Positions 31,282-39,925 of a DNA stretch of 64,000 bases are shown one piece after another. Within the stretch, counting starts at the first letter, position 1. Each line of letters starts with the position of its first letter. The DNA comes from Luteimonas saliphila. Its GTDB lineage: Bacteria > Pseudomonadota > Gammaproteobacteria > Xanthomonadales > Xanthomonadaceae. Below the pieces are notes generated by a model. That model was not told the DNA's origin. It made no database searches and saw nothing but the letters and a program-made list of their open reading frames with translations. Both the position numbers and the translations under genes were made by a program. The stretch covers positions 186,001 through 250,000 of the forward strand of contig NZ_JAETWA010000045.1 in NCBI RefSeq assembly GCF_016774335.1, in the 5' to 3' direction.

Positions 31282-31506
31282 ATGAAAGGCCTTCCATACT
31301 TGGTCAAGGGACGTATTCACGGAGAGACTGCCTCAAACATTGTGTTTGTCACGGAAGAGTTTCTTGCGAACGTGTCTGATGAGCAGTTTCGTCAAGTTAT
31401 GCGGTCCACGGTTTCTGACATCATTGAGGAAAAGTACGGGCCCGGCGTCGAGTTTGAGTTGACGTGGGAACGCGGAAATTTCGCAGAGATTCCCGTTTCG
31501 TCGTGA
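31282..31506 (+). CDS. Small phage protein, unknown
   Basis: 74 residues from ATG 31282 behind GCGAGG. Mixed fold (FVTEEFLANVSDEQFRQVMR). Its stop codon falls inside the loop of the first GNRA hairpin at 31497-31512. Confidence 0.65.
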   Translation: MKGLPYLVKGRIHGETASNIVFVTEEFLANVSDEQFRQVMRSTVSDIIEEKYGPGVEFELTWERGNFAEIPVSS

Positions 31507-31534
31507 GACGAATCGCCGCACTGTCGTGAGACAG
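31497..31534 (+). other. Tandem GNRA-hairpin RNA element, copy 1
   Basis: Hairpin A: TTCGTC-GTGA-GACGAA (31497-31512). An 8-nt linker follows. Hairpin B: CTGTC-GTGA-GACAG (31521-31534). Further hairpins follow at 31540-31552 and 31554-31572 before the first tRNA. Same architecture as copies at 31821 and 39377. Confidence 0.6.
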
Positions 31535-31579
31535 CGCAAGTCCTGACAGGACAGCCGGGTGGGATTCCCGGCCCTATTT

Positions 31580-31667
31580 GGGAGCGTGGCCGAGAGGCCG
31601 AAGGCAGCGGCTTGCTAAGCCGTAGGTCCGTTGTGGCCCGCAGGTTCGAATCCTGCCGCTCCCGCCA
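31580..31667 (+). tRNA. tRNA-Ser (anticodon GCU), prophage-encoded
   Basis: 88 nt with acceptor GGGAGCG/CGCTCCC, anticodon loop TTGCTAA (GCU, reads AGC/AGU), a long variable arm as in tRNA-Ser, T-stem GCAGG/CCTGC with TTCGAAT loop, and encoded CCA. Confidence 0.93.
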
Positions 31668-31676
31668 GGTTCAAAC

Positions 31677-31765
31677 GGGCGGTTCCGCTGTGCTGGACGG
31701 CAAGCGGTCTCGAAAACCGTGGTGCCCAGAGATGGGTAAGGGTTCGACTCCTTAACCGCCCGCCA
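31677..31765 (+). tRNA. tRNA-Ser (anticodon CGA), prophage-encoded, somewhat divergent
   Basis: 89 nt with acceptor GGGCGGT/ACCGCCC, anticodon loop CTCGAAA (CGA, reads UCG), a variable arm with CCC/GGG pairing, T-loop TTCGACT and encoded CCA. The T-stem has a mismatch and a G-U pair and the D-arm is weak, so it may be less efficient. Confidence 0.85.
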
Positions 31766-31820
31766 CATTCACGCAGGCAGTGCTCCCCGTGGAACGGGAG
31801 CCGTAGGGCTGCGCCACCGA

Positions 31821-31857
31821 CTGCCGTGAGGCAGCCGACCGCATCGCCGCGAGGCGA
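31821..31857 (+). other. Tandem GNRA-hairpin RNA element, copy 2 (capsid leader)
   Basis: Hairpin A: CTGCC-GTGA-GGCAG (31821-31834). A 9-nt linker. Hairpin B: TCGCC-GCGA-GGCGA (31844-31857). A further hairpin precedes it near 31785. The capsid start codon is 25 bases after hairpin B. Confidence 0.6.
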
Positions 31858-31882
31858 AGCAATCCCTTTGCTGGAAAAGACA

Positions 31883-33289
31883 ATGAGCGATTACAAGAAG
31901 CAGATCGAGGATCTGCAGGCGACGCGCAAGGCCAAGGCCGAGCGCATGAAGGCGATCCAGGCCAAGGCTTCCGACGAGGCCCGCACGCTGGACACTGGCG
32001 AGCAGGAAGAGTTCGACACCCTGCAGGCCGAGCTTGGCACCATCGACAAGAACGTGGGCAACCTGCGCACGCTGGAAGCGATGGACAAGGCCGATGCTGC
32101 GACCGCCGCGCCGATCAACGACAGCGCCAACCGCAACGCGACGGTTTCAACCGCCCGTTCGCATGTCGAGGTCAAAGACACCACGAAGCTTGAGCCGGGA
32201 ATGGCGTTCGCGCGCATTGCCCGCGTCAAGGCGCTGGCGTTCACCGGGCAGGCCGGCACCCGCAATGAGCTGGATATTGCCAAGAACGTGTACCCGGGCG
32301 ATGAAAAGCTGGTCACTAATCTGGTGCAAAAGGCTCCAGTGTCGGCGGCCAACACGCAATCCGAGACGTGGGCAAGCCCGCTGATCAACGACCGGGGATC
32401 TGCGTTCGCGGACTTCGTGGAGTACCTGCGTGCACGCGGCCTGTTCGGTCAGATCGCAAGCCGCTTCCGTACCCTGCCGTTCGATACGCCCGTCCTGATT
32501 CAGACTTCGGGCGCGATGGGCTACTGGACCCCGGAGGGTGCAGGCAAGGGCGCAACCTCTTGGGGCTACACCAAGACGCGCCTGTCCCCGCTTAAGGTCG
32601 CCACCATCGCGGCAGCGACTCAGGAAATGCTGATGCGGGCTTCTGTAGCCGCTGACACGCTGATTCGTGACGAGCTGGCCCGCGCGGTGAATGCCCGTAT
32701 CGACACCACCTTGGTGTCGGAGGACGCGGCGGTTCCGGACGAGTCTCCGGCCGGTCTGCGCAACAACGTGACTCCACTGACCCTGACCGGCGACGGCAGC
32801 GTGGCGGGCATCCGCTGCGACATCGCGCAGTTCCTGAAGGAGCTGGTTACGGAGAATCTTTCCGTGGCTGGCGCTTTCTGGGTCATGTCGGAAACCACCG
32901 CAATTGACTTGTCGATGGCGACGAACGAGGTTGGCGCGACTGCCTTCCCCGGCGTGACCCCGACCGGCGGCACTCTGGCCGGCCTGCCTGTTTATACGTC
33001 TCAGTACGTGCTGGACGAGACGGAAGGCCCGGTCGTGATGCTGGTGAAGGGTGACGAGATCTTCCTCGGCGACGAGGGTGGTATTCAGGTCTCGGTTTCG
33101 GATCAGGCGTCCATCCAGCTCGACACCGCGCCGACAAACAACAGCATCACCCCGACGGCAACGTCCTTGGTGTCGCTGTGGCAGACCAACTCCATCGGCT
33201 TCCGAGTGGAGCGGTATCTGAACTGGGCGAAGCGTCGTGCCCAGTCGGTGGTTTGGGCGCATGTCAACTGGAATGCGTGCGCGTCGTAA
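31883..33289 (+). CDS. Major capsid protein (HK97 fold)
   Basis: 468 residues from ATG 31883. An N-terminal coiled-coil delta domain (residues 1-80, KKQIEDLQATRKAKAERMKA) precedes the mature shell domain, whose FGQIASRFRTLPFDTPVLIQ, GKGATSWGYTKTRLSPLKVA and LAGLPVYTSQYV segments are typical HK97 capsid motifs. The long open frame upstream runs through tRNA genes and is not coding. Its leader holds a tandem GNRA hairpin element, and a strong terminator follows at 33300. Confidence 0.95.
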   Translation: MSDYKKQIEDLQATRKAKAERMKAIQAKASDEARTLDTGEQEEFDTLQAELGTIDKNVGNLRTLEAMDKADAATAAPINDSANRNATVSTARSHVEVKDTTKLEPGMAFARIARVKALAFTGQAGTRNELDIAKNVYPGDEKLVTNLVQKAPVSAANTQSETWASPLINDRGSAFADFVEYLRARGLFGQIASRFRTLPFDTPVLIQTSGAMGYWTPEGAGKGATSWGYTKTRLSPLKVATIAAATQEMLMRASVAADTLIRDELARAVNARIDTTLVSEDAAVPDESPAGLRNNVTPLTLTGDGSVAGIRCDIAQFLKELVTENLSVAGAFWVMSETTAIDLSMATNEVGATAFPGVTPTGGTLAGLPVYTSQYVLDETEGPVVMLVKGDEIFLGDEGGIQVSVSDQASIQLDTAPTNNSITPTATSLVSLWQTNSIGFRVERYLNWAKRRAQSVVWAHVNWNACAS

Positions 33290-33299
33290 GCGGTAGTTC

Positions 33300-33329
33300 G
33301 GAGGGGCTGGGAAACCGGCCCCTCCTTTT
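33300..33329 (+). terminator. Rho-independent terminator after the capsid gene
   Basis: 11-bp stem GGAGGGGCTGG / CCGGCCCCTCC closed by a GAAA tetraloop and followed by TTTT. In the middle of the late operon, it would lower expression of portal and later genes relative to capsid unless antiterminated. Confidence 0.8.
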
Positions 33330-33344
33330 CATAGGCGAGGACCA

Positions 33345-33536
33345 ATGTTGATCGAATACGTGGCGAACGGATCTCGGCGGGAAGTGCGGGACAGCATCGG
33401 CGAGGTTCTTATCGCCCGCAAGATCGCGCGGCCCGTCTATGACACCCGGCACGTTGAGCCGGAGCTGGAGATTTCCCCGCTCACCGGCAAGCCGAAGCGG
33501 CAGTACAAGCGCCGGGACATGAAGGCCGAAGAATGA
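33345..33536 (+). CDS. Small phage protein, unknown
   Basis: 63 residues. IEYVANGSRREVRDSIGEVL looks like a small beta structure, then a basic C-terminus (KPKRQYKRRDMKAEE). Position after the capsid suggests a minor head or scaffold-related protein; unproven. Confidence 0.6.
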   Translation: MLIEYVANGSRREVRDSIGEVLIARKIARPVYDTRHVEPELEISPLTGKPKRQYKRRDMKAEE

Positions 33537-33724
33537 AAGGCAAGCTCGCGGCATTCGCCGCCAACCCGATGACCTATGTCCTCGGATTCGCGCTGTGCGG
33601 CGCCGTGAGCGTTGTTTCCGGTGTGGCCTTGCTGGCTGGTGCCGGGTGGGCGCTGGTGGCCTCTGGCGCGTTCCTGCTGGCAGCGGCGGGCTACATTACA
33701 AAGGGGCTGACGCCTAATGGCTGA
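33533..33724 (+). CDS. Small two-pass membrane protein in head module
   Basis: 63 residues with two hydrophobic helices (YVLGFALCGAVSVVSGVALL and GAGWALVASGAFLLAAAGYI). A membrane peptide between capsid and portal genes is unusual; it overlaps portal by eight bases. Confidence 0.6.
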   Translation: MKGKLAAFAANPMTYVLGFALCGAVSVVSGVALLAGAGWALVASGAFLLAAAGYITKGLTPNG

Positions 33725-35123
33725 GTTGACCATCTTTGGGGCGCTGCGCAATGCGGCGACCAGCCAAAAGGCGCTAACCCCTGTCTCCAACTGGCGCGGA
33801 GGCTGGCGGACGATCCACGAACCGTTCGCTGGCGCGTGGCAGCGTAACGATGAGCTGAAGGTCGGCGACCTGACGTGCTACCCGGCGCTGTATGCGTGCC
33901 TGAACCGAATTTCGCAGGACATTGGCAAGCTGCCGTTCCTGCTGAAGCGGGAGGATGACAACGGAATCTGGCAAACGGTCGAGAACACGGCCTATAGCCC
34001 CGTCCTGCGCAAGCCGAACGGATACCAGACCGCGCAGCAGTTCCGCGAGTCGTGGATTCTGTCGAAGCTGATTCATGGGAACACCTACGTCCTGAAGCAA
34101 AGGGACAATCGGGGCGTGGTCACGTCCCTGTACGTGCTGGACCCGTGCCGCGTGATCCCGATGGTGTCGGACGCCGGCAATGTGTTCTATCAGATCAACT
34201 ATCCGTCGGCGCAGAACCTGCTGCCGCAATCGTACCCGGCTGAACAGCTGACGGTCCCGGCTTCGGAGATCATCCACGACCGGATCAATTGCTTTCACCA
34301 CCACCTGATCGGGGTTCCGCCGCTGTGTGCCGCGTACTGGCCAGCGGTGAAGAACCTGAAGATTCTGAAGTCATCGGCTGAGTTCTTCGGCAACAACGCG
34401 CAGCCGGGCGGCATTCTGACGGCGCCTGCGGGGATGGGGCCGGAGGACGCCGAAGCGATCAAAGCCTACTGGGCCGAGAACTACACCGGAGCCAACGCCG
34501 GCAAGATCGCGGTAATCGGCGCGGACATGAAGTTCACCGCGTTTGCGATGAAGTCCGCAGACTCGCAGCTGGTCGAGCAGATGCGCTACTCCGACGAGCA
34601 GATTTGCCAGCCGTTCGGCGTGCCGCCGTTCAAGATCGGCATTGGGGCGATCCCCGCCGGCCTGGGGGTGGACGCGATCAATCAGCTCTACTACGCCGAC
34701 GCCCTGCAGGGGCACATCGAGTCGATGGAAAACCTGCTGGACGAGGGGTTGCGGATCAGCCGGCCGGAAGGCGTGGAGTTGGACCTGTGGCCTCTGCTGC
34801 GCATGGACCTTGGCAAACAGGCTGACGTGATGGTCAAGCTGACTGGCGGCGGGATCGCCACTCCGAACGAAGGTCGCAAGGAATTCGGTTATGCGCCCTT
34901 GTCCGGCGGCGACACCGTTTACATGCAGCAGCAGGACTTCCCGCTGGATCAGGTGCGCAAGAACAAGATCGTGGAAGCGGAGCAGAACCCCGCACCACCA
35001 CCCGCCCCAGAACCCGAGCCTGACCCGGAAGCGGAAGCCGAGCGCGACGAGACGCGCCGCATGGCTGCGGAGCTTTACACACTCAAGGCGTTTGACGCCG
35101 CCCGTATCGAGGCTACGCGATGA
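33717..35123 (+). CDS. Portal protein (HK97 family)
   Basis: 468 residues. CYPALYACLNRISQDIGKLP, the RESWILSKLIHGNTYVLKQR block, FFGNNAQPGGILTAPAG and the EQMRYSDEQICQPFGVPPFK region are typical of Caudovirales portals of the PF04860 type. The C-terminal 60 residues are Pro/Glu-rich. It follows capsid instead of preceding protease, an uncommon order. Confidence 0.93.
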   Translation: MAELTIFGALRNAATSQKALTPVSNWRGGWRTIHEPFAGAWQRNDELKVGDLTCYPALYACLNRISQDIGKLPFLLKREDDNGIWQTVENTAYSPVLRKPNGYQTAQQFRESWILSKLIHGNTYVLKQRDNRGVVTSLYVLDPCRVIPMVSDAGNVFYQINYPSAQNLLPQSYPAEQLTVPASEIIHDRINCFHHHLIGVPPLCAAYWPAVKNLKILKSSAEFFGNNAQPGGILTAPAGMGPEDAEAIKAYWAENYTGANAGKIAVIGADMKFTAFAMKSADSQLVEQMRYSDEQICQPFGVPPFKIGIGAIPAGLGVDAINQLYYADALQGHIESMENLLDEGLRISRPEGVELDLWPLLRMDLGKQADVMVKLTGGGIATPNEGRKEFGYAPLSGGDTVYMQQQDFPLDQVRKNKIVEAEQNPAPPPAPEPEPDPEAEAERDETRRMAAELYTLKAFDAARIEATR

Positions 35124-36052
35124 TTGACCCGATTGAGTTCGGCAAGCACATGGGCGGGATCGTCCGGGATGCCGTAGCCCCGCTGCTGAAGCGGATCGAG
35201 GAACTGGAAGCCCGGCAGCCAGAGCGCGGCGAGAAGGGCGCCCCCGGTGATCCGGGCCGCGACGCCGATCCGGTGGCAGTGCCTGACGTTGTTGACGAAC
35301 TTGTCAAAACTGACGCGCTCAAGACGCTGATTGACTTGCAGGTAGCGGAATCACTTGCAGAATACATCAAGGCCAACCCCCCAAAGGATGGCAGGGACGG
35401 TGATCGCGGACCTCCCGGCGATACTGTGTCGGCGGCCGATGTTGCGTCCGAGCTGGTCAATAGCCCAGTCATCGATCACGTCATCGCCACCCGCACTGCT
35501 GATGCGGTCGCCAAGCACTTGGGCTACAACCCCCCGCCTGCCGGTAAGGATGGCGCGCCAGGACCGGAAGGCCCGCGCGGCGAGAAGGGCGCAGACGGCA
35601 AGGACGGGGCTGGAGTGGCTGACCTGCTGATCGACCGCGAGGGATCGCTGGTGGTGACCCTGACGGACGGCCGCACCAAGTCGCTGGGCACAGTGATCGG
35701 CAAGGACGGCACGCCGGGGCGCGACGGCAGGGACGGCGCCGACTTCACCGACGTTGAATTCGACTATGACGGCGAGCGCACCCTGACCATTCGTGGTCGG
35801 GGTGGTGAGATCGTCAAGCGGCTGCCGATCCCGATTGACCGGGGGTATTGGTCCGAGGGCAAGGGCGCCGAACAGGGCGACGTGTACACGCATGATGGCA
35901 CCGCGTTCATCGCCCTACGCGAGACGAAGGCCAAGCCGTGCCGGGAGAATGGCGAGGACTGGCGCATCCTGGCGCGCAAGGGCCGCGATGGGAAGGACGG
36001 GCGGAACGGTATCGACCGGACCAAGCCGGTGAAGGTCGGCGGCGATGCTTGA
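35120..36052 (+). CDS. Collagen-like phage structural protein
   Basis: 310 residues. Four short Gly-X-Y stretches (around residues 40, 92, 138 and 195, e.g. GEKGAPGDPGRDADP and GKDGTPGRDGRDGADF) separate folded parts. The C-terminus (RGYWSEGKGAEQGDVYTHDG) resembles a small carbohydrate-binding module. Such genes in head clusters often encode head fibres or decoration proteins that trimerise. Overlaps portal by four bases. Confidence 0.8.
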   Translation: MIDPIEFGKHMGGIVRDAVAPLLKRIEELEARQPERGEKGAPGDPGRDADPVAVPDVVDELVKTDALKTLIDLQVAESLAEYIKANPPKDGRDGDRGPPGDTVSAADVASELVNSPVIDHVIATRTADAVAKHLGYNPPPAGKDGAPGPEGPRGEKGADGKDGAGVADLLIDREGSLVVTLTDGRTKSLGTVIGKDGTPGRDGRDGADFTDVEFDYDGERTLTIRGRGGEIVKRLPIPIDRGYWSEGKGAEQGDVYTHDGTAFIALRETKAKPCRENGEDWRILARKGRDGKDGRNGIDRTKPVKVGGDA

Positions 36053-36458
36053 GCTTGTCAGCGTCGAGGACGCCCGCTATCAGCTTCGGCTGGACGACCC
36101 GGACAGCGACGGCGGGGCGGATGACGGGTGGCTGGCGATCTTCATCCCGGCCGTGTCGGCTGCGGTCGCGCTGTGGCTGAAAGACGAGTGGCGGGTGTAC
36201 CTGCCGGAGCTGGATTCAGTCGGTGTCCCCGTGCTGGACAGCAACGACGACCCGATCCCCGCGCTCGATAGCAGCGGCGCCCCCATCGTTCACCCGACCG
36301 TGCGCGCGGCGGTGCTGATCGAGCTGGCCTCGCAGTTCCGGTTCCGCGAGGGCGAGGGGAAGGACAACGTGGTCACACCCGATGCGGGCTATGGCTACAC
36401 GCTCAACAAGGCGAGCACGGCGCTGCTGACCGGGCTGCGTCGGCCGACGGTGGCCTAA
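36045..36458 (+). CDS. Head-tail connector (gp6-like)
   Basis: 137 residues. Starts LVSVEDARYQLRLDDPDSDG, the usual opening of gp6-like adaptor proteins, with a helical AAVLIELASQFRFREGEGKD end. Binds below the portal and closes the head. Confidence 0.82.
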   Translation: MLELVSVEDARYQLRLDDPDSDGGADDGWLAIFIPAVSAAVALWLKDEWRVYLPELDSVGVPVLDSNDDPIPALDSSGAPIVHPTVRAAVLIELASQFRFREGEGKDNVVTPDAGYGYTLNKASTALLTGLRRPTVA

Positions 36459-36797
36459 GTGAGCCTCGCATCCGGCCGCCTGCGCCACCGCATCGAGCTA
36501 CAGGCTCCGGTGACGACGCAAGATCCGATCACGGGCGAGATGGAGACGACGTGGCAGACCTACGCCCGCGTGTGGGCTGAGATCGTTCCACTGTCCGCGC
36601 GCGAGTTCATCGCCGCATCCGCCGAGCAATCCGAAGTCCGGGGCCGCATCACGATACGCCGCCGGGCTGACGTGAACGCATCGCACCGCGCGGTGCATCG
36701 CGGGATGGCGTACGACATTCTCGGCGTGCTGGCCGACCCGGTGAGTGGGTTGGAGTATCAGACGCTTCCGGTGAGCGAGGGCGTCAAGGTCGCGTAA
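36459..36797 (+). CDS. Head closure protein (SPP1 gp16/HK97 gp7-like)
   Basis: 112 residues from GTG 36459. LRHRIELQAPVTTQDPITGE, WAEIVPLSAREFIAASAEQS and ITIRRRADVN are diagnostic of the phage head-tail joining family PF05521. Ends one base before the next start. Confidence 0.9.
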   Translation: MSLASGRLRHRIELQAPVTTQDPITGEMETTWQTYARVWAEIVPLSAREFIAASAEQSEVRGRITIRRRADVNASHRAVHRGMAYDILGVLADPVSGLEYQTLPVSEGVKVA

Positions 36798-37324
36798 TGC
36801 TTTGGTACGTCCTCGCCCCCGGCCCGAGCATGTCGGCCGGGCTGGCCGAGCGCGTCCGGGGCAACAATTGTTGCGTGGTCAGCAACACCTACACGCTGGC
36901 CCCGTGGGCTGACGTGCTGGTCGCCAATGACCATGCGTGGTGGCGCAAGCATCCCGAGGCGCACCAGTTCTCAGGGCGCAAGTTCAGCGCCAACGAGATC
37001 AAGGGAGTCGAGCGGGCCAAGCCCTGCACCTTCGGCAGCCGGGGGAATAGCGGTGTCCTGGCGCTGGACGTGGTGCGCAACCTTGGGGCCAAGCGCGTGA
37101 TCCTGCTGGGGCTGGACATGCACGGCACGCATTTCTTCGGTCCGTACAAGAACGGCTGCACGAACACGACCGAAGCCAAGCGCCGGATTCACGTCGCGCA
37201 GTTCAAGCAATGGCGGCGGCGGAACCCCGGCATTGAGGTCACCAACTGCACCGAAGGGTCAGCCCTGACGTGCTTTCCCATGGCGAGGCTAGATGAAGTC
37301 GATTGTCACATGGCTGTGGAATGA
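36797..37324 (+). CDS. DUF115-like / MAF-type protein in a modification cassette
   Basis: 175 residues. VLAPGPSM near the start, the GSRGNSGVLALDVVRNLGAK block and VILLGLDM resemble phage and bacterial proteins of the DUF115/MAF_flag10 sugar-transfer group. With the glycosyltransferase and methyltransferase downstream, it forms a three-gene insert between head closure and gp10 genes. Enzymatic role is inferred. Confidence 0.65.
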   Translation: MLWYVLAPGPSMSAGLAERVRGNNCCVVSNTYTLAPWADVLVANDHAWWRKHPEAHQFSGRKFSANEIKGVERAKPCTFGSRGNSGVLALDVVRNLGAKRVILLGLDMHGTHFFGPYKNGCTNTTEAKRRIHVAQFKQWRRRNPGIEVTNCTEGSALTCFPMARLDEVDCHMAVE

Positions 37325-37994
37325 CGGTGGACGCGGGTACAAGCCCGAGCACGTCAACGTCCTGCACCGGATGTTCAAGCGCCACCTTCCGGAGCCGCAT
37401 CGGTTCATCTGCATCACGGACGATGCGGGGCAGTTTGACGAGGGGGTCGAGATTATGCCAACGCCTGCGGACGCCCGCGCGCTGGCGAACCTGAAAACTC
37501 CGGAGGGTTCACGGTTCCCGAGCTGCTACCGGCGGCTGTGGATGTTTTCGGACGAGGCTCGCTGCCTAGGTGAGCGCGTCCTGCTGGTGGACATTGACCT
37601 TCTGCTGGTCGGGGATGCGTCCAAGCTGTTCGCACCGCAAGACGAGTTCGTTGGCTGGAAGCCGAGCGCATCGTGGGGACACAACAACAACCGGATCGGC
37701 GGGGGAATCTACCTGTTGACGCCGGGAGCCCGCACCGAAGTCTGGACGGACTTCAAGGGCGCCGAGTCAATCCGCGAAGCCCGCGCCAAGGGATACCGTG
37801 GCAGCGATCAAGCGTGGCTGAGCCACAAGCTTTGGGGATGCCCACTGTTCCCGAAGTCGGCCGGAATCTACAGCATCCGCGACCTGCGAAATGGTGCGGT
37901 GAAGCCGCCGTCGGATGCGGTGCTTATCCAGCACAACGGGACCACGAAGCCGTGGACATCGCGTGTTCCGTGGGTGCAGAGCGCGTGGCATTGA
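37293..37994 (+). CDS. Glycosyltransferase (GT-A, GT8-like)
   Basis: 233 residues. RFICITDDAGQF is an early strand of the GT-A fold and VLLVDIDLLLVGD holds the D-x-D metal site; NRIGGGIYLLTPGARTEVW and GSDQAWLSHKLWG fit the acceptor side. Likely transfers a sugar to a phage or host product. Overlaps upstream by 32 bp. Confidence 0.75.
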   Translation: MKSIVTWLWNDGGRGYKPEHVNVLHRMFKRHLPEPHRFICITDDAGQFDEGVEIMPTPADARALANLKTPEGSRFPSCYRRLWMFSDEARCLGERVLLVDIDLLLVGDASKLFAPQDEFVGWKPSASWGHNNNRIGGGIYLLTPGARTEVWTDFKGAESIREARAKGYRGSDQAWLSHKLWGCPLFPKSAGIYSIRDLRNGAVKPPSDAVLIQHNGTTKPWTSRVPWVQSAWH

Positions 37995-38500
37995 TTACCG
38001 AGGAATACCGCAGGCTTAACCGGGAAGCGCACGAAGATCCAAGGTATGGGACGGCGGGGCAAATGCACGCCGATCTGGTGCAGTCCGTCATCGACCGATC
38101 CGGGGCGCGGGCCCTGCTGGACTACGGGTGCGGCAAGCAGACACTAAGCGGCGCTTTGAGTGGCGTCGAGTATCGGGGATACGACCCCGCCTTGCCGGGT
38201 CTGGACGGGCCCCCTGCGCCCGCTGACGTGGTGTATTGCGGCGACGTGATGGAGCACGTGGAGGAACAGTTTACTGATGCCGTCTTGGCCGACGTGGCGA
38301 GTATGGCAGGCAAGGCGGCCATCTTCACGATCTGCTGCGCCGAGGGCAATCGAATCCTTGGGGACGGCAAGCCCGCGCATCGGAACGTCCACCCCGTAGA
38401 GTTCTGGCGGGGCAAGCTGTCCGCGTATGGCCGGCTTGAGGAACACGAGGGGATCGCAAGCAAGCCCGAATACCGGGTGGTCGTTTGGAAGGGGAATTGA
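37985..38500 (+). CDS. SAM-dependent methyltransferase
   Basis: 171 residues from GTG 37985 (TTG 37991 also possible). ALLDYGCGKQTLSGALSGVE is motif I; ADVVYCGDVMEHVEEQ is the motif II region of class I methyltransferases. Third gene of the modification cassette; target unknown. Confidence 0.75.
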   Translation: MALITEEYRRLNREAHEDPRYGTAGQMHADLVQSVIDRSGARALLDYGCGKQTLSGALSGVEYRGYDPALPGLDGPPAPADVVYCGDVMEHVEEQFTDAVLADVASMAGKAAIFTICCAEGNRILGDGKPAHRNVHPVEFWRGKLSAYGRLEEHEGIASKPEYRVVVWKGN

Positions 38501-38965
38501 GTGGCTGACTTCGAGTTCCGAATCGAGGGCCTTGAGGAAGTCAAGCGCAAGCTGAAGGCCCTGCCGGAGAAGTTCGCCAAGCGCGGGATGCGACGGGCAC
38601 TTCGCAAGGGCGCCAACATCGTGCGCAACGCGGCGCGCAACAACGCCAAGCGGATCGATGACCCAGCAACCCGCGAGCAAATCTGGAAGAACACCGTTGT
38701 TGCAGGTGGTGGAGCGCGGCGGGAGCGGCAGGAAGGCGGCCCGATGATGCGGATTGGCGTGCGTGGTGGCGCCAAGCCAACGAGCGGCGACAACGGCCAG
38801 CCCGGCGGTAACACGACCCACTGGCGGTTCATTGAGCTGGGGACAAGTCTCGCAGCCGCGCAGCCGTTCATGCGGCCCGCGCTGGCTAACAACGTGGCGG
38901 CCGTGACCAACGCCGTAGTGGACGCGGCAAAGGTCGAACTTGATAAGGAACTGGCGAAGCTCTGA
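38501..38965 (+). CDS. HK97 gp10-like tail/neck protein
   Basis: 154 residues from GTG 38501. RIEGLEEVKRKLKALPEKFA and ALRKGANIVRNAARNNAKRI, closing with FMRPALANNVAAVTNAVVDA, are typical of HK97 gp10-family neck proteins joining head and tail. Confidence 0.9.
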   Translation: MADFEFRIEGLEEVKRKLKALPEKFAKRGMRRALRKGANIVRNAARNNAKRIDDPATREQIWKNTVVAGGGARRERQEGGPMMRIGVRGGAKPTSGDNGQPGGNTTHWRFIELGTSLAAAQPFMRPALANNVAAVTNAVVDAAKVELDKELAKL

Positions 38966-39351
38966 TGATCCCGACCATCTTCACCTACGCCGCGCAGTCC
39001 GTCACAGTGACGACGCTGCTTGGCACGAACCCGACCCGGTTCTGGTCGTTCAACCAAGCGCCGCACGCCAAGGATGACGCCATCGCGGCTGCGCCCTATT
39101 CCGTATGGCAGTTGGTCTACGGCTCGCCCGCAAACTACATCGGCGGACTGCCCGATTCGGATAACACCGGAATCCAGGTGGACTGTTACGCCACCACCGC
39201 AACAGGTGCGCGCTCCGTGCTGATCGCCCTGCGCGACGCATTCGAGCCGCACGGCTACGTCACCGCATACAACGGCGAGGACAGGGACACCGCAACGGGC
39301 CTGTACCGCGCCGGCTTCACCGTCGAGTTCTGGACGGATAGAGGCAGCTAG
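38965..39351 (+). CDS. Tail completion/terminator protein (DUF3168-like)
   Basis: 128 residues. PYSVWQLVYGSPANYIGGLP, the VDCYATTATGARSVLIALRD block and LYRAGFTVEFWTDRGS fit the DUF3168 tail-completion family that caps the tail tube. Confidence 0.85.
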   Translation: MIPTIFTYAAQSVTVTTLLGTNPTRFWSFNQAPHAKDDAIAAAPYSVWQLVYGSPANYIGGLPDSDNTGIQVDCYATTATGARSVLIALRDAFEPHGYVTAYNGEDRDTATGLYRAGFTVEFWTDRGS

Positions 39352-39376
39352 TTCGGGGTCTAGAACCCGAAGCCGC

Positions 39377-39414
39377 CAGCCGTGAGGCTGCCGGTTCACC
39401 GCGCCGTGAGGCGC
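39377..39414 (+). other. Tandem GNRA-hairpin RNA element, copy 3 (tail tube leader)
   Basis: Hairpin A: CAGCC-GTGA-GGCTG (39377-39390). A 10-nt linker. Hairpin B: GCGCC-GTGA-GGCGC (39401-39414). A third hairpin TTCGGG/CCCGAA precedes at 39352-39371. The tail tube start is 28 bases downstream. Confidence 0.6.
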
Positions 39415-39442
39415 TGTTTCCCATCGATGGAAGGAAAGAAAA

Positions 39443-39925
39443 ATGCCAGCTCTGAATGTGCAGGGTTCCAACCTGTACTTCATCGACCCGGACGCCAGCG
39501 GCGGACCGGAGGTTGTTGAAGTCGGGTGCGTGACCACCCTTGACGGCCTGACGGCCTCCCGCGACCAGCTTGACGTGACCTGCATCTCCGACGAGGCGCG
39601 CAGGTTCGAGGCTGGTCTGCTGACGCCCGGCGCGGCGACGTTCACCATCCTGTTCGACCTGTCCGACGAGTCTCATGCGCGGATGCATGAACTCTACCGT
39701 GCCGGCACGACCTTGGAGTGGGCGCTCGGCTTGGCCGACAACCCGGACACTCCGCCGACCGGCGTCGATTCCGACGGGTTCATCCTGCCGACCGACCGCA
39801 GCTTCATCACGTTCGAGGGCTACCTGTCCGACTTCCCGTGGTCGTTCGCTACCGGGCAGAAGGTGACCAACAACATCTCTGTGCAGGTGTCGGACTTCCC
39901 GCTCCTGGTCCGCGCGACCACCTAA
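39443..39925 (+). CDS. Major tail tube protein
   Basis: 160 residues. Beta-rich (VVEVGCVTTLDGLTASRDQL, TFTILFDLSDESHARMHELY, ISVQVSDFPLLV) as in lambda-V/HK97 tail tube proteins. Strong ribosome site GGAAGGA. Preceded by a tandem GNRA-hairpin element and followed by a predicted pseudoknot. Confidence 0.88.
   Translation: MPALNVQGSNLYFIDPDASGGPEVVEVGCVTTLDGLTASRDQLDVTCISDEARRFEAGLLTPGAATFTILFDLSDESHARMHELYRAGTTLEWALGLADNPDTPPTGVDSDGFILPTDRSFITFEGYLSDFPWSFATGQKVTNNISVQVSDFPLLVRATT

What the first reader, a model, noticed from the sequence alone, without database searches (positions are those of the whole stretch)
31497..39414. Recurrent tandem GNRA-hairpin RNA element at the capsid and tail tube genes
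Three non-coding spots carry the same design: two short GC stems with GTGA or GCGA tetraloops, 8-10 nt apart (31497-31534, 31821-31857, 39377-39414). Stem sequences differ but pairing is kept (CTGTC/GACAG, CTGCC/GGCAG, CAGCC/GGCTG, GCGCC/GGCGC and so on), which looks like covariation. Copies 2 and 3 end 25-28 nt before the start codons of the two most abundant virion proteins. Roles could be message stability, a processing site, a protein-binding operator, or put-like antitermination as in phage HK022. I know no named motif of this form.
Basis: partly seen in the sequence, partly recalled or inferred. Interest (0 to 1): 0.78.

Follow-up and report, generated by a model that had tools for sequence, protein, structure and literature searches.

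The report
RNA leader of phage virion genes
Short folded RNA signals sit just in front of the genes for the main coat and tail proteins in this bacterial virus, and the same design recurs in quite unrelated phages, probably to control how much of those proteins is made.

Summary
Three tandem GNRA-hairpin pairs lie where stated (simulations: 0.1 per window strand). Related leaders keep the stems with compensatory changes.

The element is larger than described. Each hairpin has 5 bp, a 1x1 mismatch (mostly A.C) and about 2 bp, with a GUGA or GCGA loop. A third mini-hairpin, UCC-N-GGA, follows, and its GGA is the Shine-Dalgarno (35 of 39 sites; 76 of 436 control ORF starts). A second covarying element, B, precedes the capsid gene (31770-31815).

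The element follows gene role, not gene family. It precedes HK97-type capsid genes, three major-tail families and, singly, lambda-type gpD and gpE. Hairpin 1 alone precedes P22-type and other capsid genes and the coat gene of two ssRNA phages, one named by position only. Sampled host genomes essentially lack it. No Rfam match.

Best reading: a post-transcriptional leader, read by host machinery, that sets ribosome loading and/or message protection of major virion genes. Put-like antitermination is unlikely. Function is inferred, not shown.

The parts
31495..31537 (+). Element A copy 1 (two mismatch-containing GTGA hairpins), after the protease stop and before the tRNA genes; no gene starts behind it
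   Evidence: R1 53.9 bits
31540..31552 (+). third hairpin of copy 1 (5 bp, not a ribosome-binding site)
   Evidence: in MFE fold
31554..31572 (+). fourth GC hairpin before the first tRNA gene; similar ones in L021, L023, L066
31580..31667 (+). tRNA-Ser (GCT)
   Evidence: ARAGORN
31677..31765 (+). tRNA-Ser (CGA)
   Evidence: ARAGORN
31770..31815 (+). Element B: stem, conserved asymmetric internal loop, variable stem, loop CGTGGAAC; found at capsid leaders
   Evidence: 66.6 bits
31818..31860 (+). Element A copy 2 (tandem hairpins, A.C and A.A mismatches)
   Evidence: R1 66.6 bits
31863..31875 (+). Shine-Dalgarno mini-hairpin UCC-N7-GGA of the capsid gene
31883..33289 (+). major capsid protein gene
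   Evidence: phrog_617
33300..33325 (+). 11-bp terminator-like hairpin 10 nt after the capsid stop
39352..39371 (+). T1 hairpin (UUCGGG..CCCGAA) just upstream of copy 3; similar hairpins before several relatives' tail-tube copies
39374..39417 (+). Element A copy 3 (tandem hairpins)
   Evidence: R1 55.3 bits
39419..39431 (+). Shine-Dalgarno mini-hairpin UCC-N7-GGA of the tail-tube gene
39443..39925 (+). major tail (tube) protein gene
   Evidence: phrog_158

Best explanation
Element A is a cis-acting RNA leader of major virion-protein genes. One or two stiff GYGA hairpins are followed by a weak hairpin that holds the Shine-Dalgarno. It acts on the message, not on transcription. The hairpins insulate and shield the ribosome-binding region from upstream RNA and from decay. 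The weak third hairpin keeps the site closed until a ribosome (or a host factor bound at the GYGA hairpins) opens it. The capsid and tail-tube cistrons are thus translated strongly and independently of their neighbours in the late operon. The reader of the signal is host machinery or the ribosome itself, not a phage-specific regulator. Shown here: anatomy, covariation, position relative to start codons, spread by gene role across unrelated phages, near-absence from the host genomes sampled. Inferred: direction (increase), mechanism, the host reader.
For: Stem compensation in leaders of loci mostly fetched by protein homology (rows chosen by eye as carrying the element): A6, 12 capsid leaders, 97.6% of cells paired, 5 of 14 pairs with double changes, covariation 0.248 against 0.111 shuffled; A7, 9 tail leaders (L178 came from model R1 and L192 as its relative), 86.4%, 7 of 14, 0.274 against 0.124. 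Register: loops of the recognised copies 22-24 nt apart where 18-34 was allowed; start codon 21-27 nt after hairpin 2 at 32 of 32 sites. Shine-Dalgarno mini-hairpin at 35 of 39 sites against 76 of 436 mechanically chosen ORF starts with a GGA. Same leader before capsid phrog_617, tail phrog_158/584/807, and singly before lambda-type gpD (phrog_49) and gpE (phrog_29). Hairpin 1, letter for letter, before P22-coat (PF11651), PF05065 and PF13252 capsid genes and before an ssRNA-phage coat gene. Host genomes sampled lack it. No window ORF matches all three of the G405, G387 and PAJU2 phage stretches.
Against: No expression, probing or ribosome data. A hairpin holding the Shine-Dalgarno could equally repress. 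Copy 1 in the window and its relatives has no gene behind it, so not every copy is a translation leader. Most relatives do without it: by eye 12 of 67 capsid leaders and 8 of 48 tail leaders carry it. The strong hairpin behind the capsid gene (22 of 23 loci) is also there in the 8 loci of that list without element A, so it is not tied to A. Five single or distant leaders fold no or little better than shuffles (z -0.27, -0.98, -0.32, -2.01, -2.08); window copy 2 with B has z -0.81. The nearest named ssRNA relatives have other sequence at that place.
Confidence: 0.5

Rival explanations
1. mRNA end-protection/processing signal. Late RNA is cut (by RNases, and by tRNA maturation in the window); element A caps the new 5' end of the capsid or tail message, as the hairpins of the ompA 5' UTR do, and copy 1 caps the 3' end of the upstream fragment. 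Translation is affected only through half-life.
For: Copies 1 and 2 flank the tRNA pair; tRNAs sit in the same slot in L026 and L064. The capsid cistron is closed by a strong 3' hairpin in 22 of 23 loci against 168 of 445 stops of mechanical ORFs. Sister phages hold terminator-like hairpins in the same place (by eye).
Against: Only 3 of 33 loci scanned have tRNAs in the slot. The loop is nearly always GYGA (34 of 36 and 37 of 40 tetraloops counted; the set was partly chosen by pattern), where stability alone would allow GAAA or UUCG. The tie to the Shine-Dalgarno is not needed for end protection. Behind tail genes the hairpin rate is 10 of 20. The 3' hairpin is equally present without element A.
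Confidence: 0.27
2. Operator for a trans-acting RNA-binding protein (host, or a small phage protein missed here) that times virion-protein synthesis.
For: Conserved GYGA loop, recurrent A.C mismatch at one distance from the loop and fixed spacing of two sites look like recognition rather than mere stability. The mini-hairpin can close the ribosome-binding site.
Against: No window ORF (35 aa or more) matches all of G405 (58 kb read), G387 (48 of 87 kb read) and PAJU2 at tblastn E<=1e-4; the other carriers were not compared, and a short or fast-changing protein could be missed. Target proteins are unrelated, so autogenous control is unlikely. Host chromosomes sampled lack the site.
Confidence: 0.17
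3. Put-like or nut/boxB-like antitermination site in the late transcript.
For: Two stem-loops, as in putRNA; GNRA-fold hairpin with 5 bp, as in boxB (recalled).
Against: putRNA is about 70 nt, lies downstream of the early promoters and acts over 10 kb (PMC9378689 passages); here 43-44 nt, repeated, copies 2 and 3 locked to start codons, and hairpin 1 before coat genes of ssRNA phages.
Confidence: 0.03
4. Mimic of a large-subunit rRNA hairpin: the core GTCGTGAGACAG of hairpin 1 also occurs in host 23S rRNA, so a ribosomal protein or rRNA-modifying/helicase protein might bind it.
For: In the own genome the 12-mer occurs three times: in the prophage and in two stretches matched by the LSU rRNA model.
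Against: Only the top of the hairpin matches; the predicted rRNA hairpin has a bulge below it; three hairpin-2 type cores tested do not occur in the rRNA stretch, and stems vary.
Confidence: 0.03

Closest known systems
Start-associated sequences (SAS/ESAS) of cluster K mycobacteriophages (PMC3203893, passages read)
   Same: phage repeats fixed just upstream of start codons, about half of them with an upstream imperfect 17-bp inverted repeat; the authors link them to translation initiation, function unknown
   Different: SAS is one 13-bp sequence at the start site of a range of gene families in mycobacteriophages; here stems vary while pairing is kept, and the genes are mostly major virion proteins
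E. coli ompA 5' UTR stabiliser (PMC7509114 passages; hairpin layout recalled)
   Same: leader that stabilises the message, with a strong Shine-Dalgarno
   Different: host gene; no GYGA/mismatch design (recalled)
T7 gene 10 leader (recalled)
   Same: stem-loop upstream of the ribosome site of the major capsid gene
   Different: transcript starts at the hairpin; other structure
MS2 coat-gene initiation hairpin (recalled; search listing only)
   Same: Shine-Dalgarno held in a weak hairpin that sets coat translation
   Different: no tandem GYGA hairpins upstream
HK022 putRNA (PMC9378689 passages)
   Same: two stem-loops in a phage transcript
   Different: length, place downstream of early promoters, acts on RNA polymerase

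Membership tests
HK022 put antiterminator | about 70-nt RNA of two long stem-loops downstream of early promoters | tested here: not met
   43-44 nt, inside the late operon, three copies, two of them 22 and 25 nt before start codons (paper passages)
HK022 put antiterminator | suppresses termination through RNA polymerase beta' zinc-binding domain | not testable with these tools
   needs a transcription assay; hairpin 1 in ssRNA phages argues against
nut/boxB | 5-bp hairpin with GNRA-like pentaloop next to boxA, bound by an N-like peptide (recalled) | tested here: inconclusive
   5-bp GNRA hairpins met, some GUGAN pentaloops; boxA and an N-like protein were not searched for
SAS/ESAS | 13-bp consensus over the start region | tested here: not met
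   the conserved UCC-N-GGA has no fixed 13-bp sequence; the SAS consensus itself was not scanned for
Rfam families (release 15) | score at or above a family's gathering cut-off | tested here: not met
   only tRNA reaches a cut-off in the region; sub-threshold hits (tRNA-Sec, Plastid-psbl-rps4 antisense to a tRNA, Hammerhead_II at 31364-31392, IRES_Bip inside a capsid gene of L071) do not lie on elements A or B
intrinsic terminator | GC hairpin followed by a T run | tested here: not met
   none of the three copies was flagged; copy 3 has only a short TGTTT behind it; terminator-like hairpins stand in the same place in sister phages
ompA-type 5' stabiliser | prolongs mRNA half-life | not testable with these tools
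   no RNA data
host dispersed palindromes (REP-like) | many copies in host intergenic regions | tested here: not met
   hairpin-1 pattern in own genome twice, both in the prophage; 1 of 398 phylum genomes, the own one

The most novel reading that the evidence does not exclude
A general 'virion-protein leader': one RNA signal (GYGA hairpin, alone or in tandem, plus a Shine-Dalgarno mini-hairpin) read by bacterial hosts and used by unrelated tailed dsDNA phages and by ssRNA phages alike to drive their coat, decoration and tail-tube genes. It would have been passed between phages or reached by convergence because a host factor or the ribosome recognises it.
Probability: 0.35. Interest if true: 0.88.

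Novelty: new variant of a known kind. Interest (0 to 1): 0.74.

Why it matters
How phages make hundreds of capsid and tail-tube subunits from one polycistronic late message, while neighbouring genes give a few copies, is to my knowledge mostly unexplained outside a few model phages. A small RNA module that marks those genes across unrelated phages makes the question testable with simple reporters. It would also give a sequence handle for finding the major virion genes in unannotated phages: here it pointed to the tail gene of Salicola phage CGphi29, annotated as hypothetical.

Tried and rejected
Host regulon: the hairpin-1 core pattern is in the own genome only in the prophage. In 198 family genomes a looser pattern gave 5 hits: one is the element; one I read (L190) lies among repeated palindromes that look like host repeats; the other three were not examined. 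CM hits of 23-32 bits in 34 other family genomes I take as background: only the best, G025 at 31.8 bits, was read, and it looks coding by eye.

A longer viral pattern (hairpin plus fixed UCC/GGA spacing) found nothing.

BLAST of short leaders against named phages gave PAJU2 and IME307 and Salicola phage CGphi29; the window tail leader and the P22-type leader gave only short chance-level matches.

Autogenous control and a shared phage-coded factor: judged unlikely and the unrelated targets, with the limits stated there.

I did not build a third covariance model (hairpin plus Shine-Dalgarno, alignment A8), because the Shine-Dalgarno columns did not align.

Selection bias and dropped rows: A3 and model R1 were seeded by a pairing rule and the viral scans by a pattern, so their pairing and loop counts are inflated. 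A6 and A7 were chosen by eye from protein-fetched loci; L066 (core scoring as L064) was left out of A6 and the single hairpin of L071 out of A7. The loop census counts 36 first and 40 second hairpins of 45 distinct rows, dropping gapped and pentaloop rows. The 33:0 strand count includes repeats of the same contigs and about seven chance pairs, mostly in coding sequence. Element B: 11 of 500 shuffles reached its number of double-change pairs, none its covariation score.

Papers: searches aimed at this element and found no description of it; 53, 64, 65, 142, 143 aimed at analogues; 99 failed. Not every paper is held.
Full report
WHAT IS THERE. The window is part of a 4.6-Mb genome (G000:C43:186001-250000); a same-genus genome (G035, contig of 331,150 bases) fits a Luteimonas record. 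It holds a prophage with terminase, protease, capsid (31883-33289), portal and tail genes. The three tandem hairpin pairs are at the stated places and far above chance. Each hairpin is 5 bp, then a 1x1 mismatch, then about 2 bp. The pairing pattern '5 pairs, 1 break, 2 pairs' is the commonest among the recognised copies. The break is A.C in 24 of 36 first and 21 of 40 second hairpins counted (copies partly found by pattern, gapped and pentaloop rows dropped). Loops there are GTGA in 31 of 36 and 30 of 40. In the recognised copies the two loops lie 22-24 nt apart.

RELATIVES. Capsid relatives were fetched by protein. I printed the leaders of 67 of the 83 loci. By eye, 12 carry element A before the capsid gene (L021, L023, L026-L030, L032, L042, L064, L066, L071). 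Many others carry element B, and another group has terminator-like hairpins there. Of 48 distinct tail-tube leaders, 8 carry A in tandem, partial or single form, among them the window and the named Pseudomonas phage PAJU2 (L105); vB_PaS_IME307 has the same DNA at 98.8%. Across 1.31 Mb of held loci there are 33 strict tandem pairs on the gene strand and none on the other (repeats and some chance pairs included).

COVARIATION. A3 (17 copies, picked by a pairing rule): 10 of 14 pairs with double changes. The fairer A6 and A7. Model R1 gives 22 hits above 40 bits in 95 loci, all on the gene strand; the best antisense hit is 16 bits.

THIRD PART. Behind hairpin 2 comes UCC, 3-12 nt, GGA, the GGA being the Shine-Dalgarno: 35 of 39 sites against 76 of 436 mechanically chosen ORF starts with a GGA. 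The four exceptions have shorter C-G pairings there (my reading). The start codon follows 21-27 nt after hairpin 2 at 32 of 32 sites measured. In copy 1 and its relatives a third hairpin follows too, but with other sequence and no gene. So the module is two or three hairpins, and where a gene follows the last one holds the ribosome site.

ELEMENT B. Window 31770-31815. 21 sequences: 98.7% of cells paired, 6 of 11 pairs with double changes, covariation 0.353 against 0.179. Model R2 gives 34 rows above 43 bits in 92 sources, the next being 22.9; two of the rows (L019, L032) are one contig. Rows compared with known capsid starts lie directly upstream; L169 was not checked. It occurs once per source and also in the named Stenotrophomonas phage SOVA965 (L104). 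Of 321 class genomes only the own one has it.

SPREAD. R1 in whole genomes: 3 of 398 in the order, 1 of 369 in the class (own). The two new ones lie in phage-like stretches of other types. G405 looks lambda-like: the tandem precedes an Ig-domain major tail protein (phrog_807), and single hairpins with the mini-hairpin precede gpD (phrog_49) and gpE (phrog_29). Its relative L192 shows the same three sites. G387 has it before phrog_584. A scan for hairpin 1 alone gave 33 stretches, 19 new loci, 2 of them the G405 type. Of the other 17, 11 have UCC-N(3-20)-GGA within 60 nt; counted once per distinct site, 9 of 14, against 1135 of 6800 random 60-nt stretches of the same contigs. Downstream genes: PF05065 capsid (L212), PF13252 capsid (L219), P22 coat PF11651 (L220), tail tube (L203 by family; L215 by resemblance only), scaffolding phrog_3927 (L205), unknown (L204/L209/L216, L207, L217), and no convincing gene at that distance in L208/L218, L210, L211. 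Two contigs are ssRNA phages: L206 (replicase PF03431, 1e-46; coat 66.7% identical to the annotated coat protein of ssRNA phage Gephyllon.3_3) and L202 (replicase 2e-37, maturation PF03863 8.5e-8; the coat named by position only). Both have the hairpin 20 nt before that start. The two named ssRNA relatives looked at do not have this hairpin. Salicola phage CGphi29 has it, with UCC-N-GGA, before SLPG_00031, a major tail protein by phrog_158; its capsid leader lacks it by eye.

MECHANISM. Position, the Shine-Dalgarno link and the ssRNA phages place the function after transcription. Unrelated target proteins and the lack of a gene common to the three carriers compared point to host machinery. A strong hairpin behind the capsid gene (present with and without A) and the tRNA slot keep message protection/processing as a strong rival. 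Whether the element raises or restrains expression is not shown.

NOVELTY. No Rfam match and no paper found. The nearest published relative in kind is SAS/ESAS. I rate it a new variant of a known kind, a structured phage gene leader, with an unusually wide and role-bound spread.

Noticed in passing
window 31770-31815; L104:4096-4135 and 32 further rows: Element B: a second covarying RNA with a conserved internal loop, once per source, at the capsid leader; riboswitch- or protein-site-like; no Rfam match.
   Followed up: partly
window 33300-33325; relatives: A strong tetraloop hairpin (often UUCG or GAAA) 4-27 nt after the capsid stop in 22 of 23 loci, with or without element A.
   Followed up: partly
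L034-L038, L040, L041, L043, L044, L046, L047, L053, L054, L101; D3 (L107): Sister phages have terminator-like hairpins immediately before the capsid and/or tail-tube ribosome site, where a terminator would be unexpected.
   Followed up: no
L201:20147-20602 (Salicola phage CGphi29 SLPG_00031): Annotated hypothetical; a major tail protein by phrog_158, found through the leader hairpin.
   Followed up: yes
window 39352-39371 and tail-tube leaders of L005, L026, L066, L173, L178, L201: Extra hairpin (T1) upstream of tail-tube copies, often with a palindromic loop (CTAG, TGCA, CATG).
   Followed up: no
window 31554-31572; L021, L023, L066: Hairpin close to GCCGGG-UGRGANU-CCCGGC behind copy-1 elements, with a T-loop-like loop.
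   Followed up: no
L208:3243-3261 and L218:4324-4342: Exact hairpin 1 in contigs of 204 and 143 kb, 67 nt before a 61-aa ORF; meaning unclear.
   Followed up: no
L223, L224 (own genome C45, C47): Core of hairpin 1 (GTCGTGAGACAG) is identical to a stretch of host 23S rRNA.
   Followed up: partly
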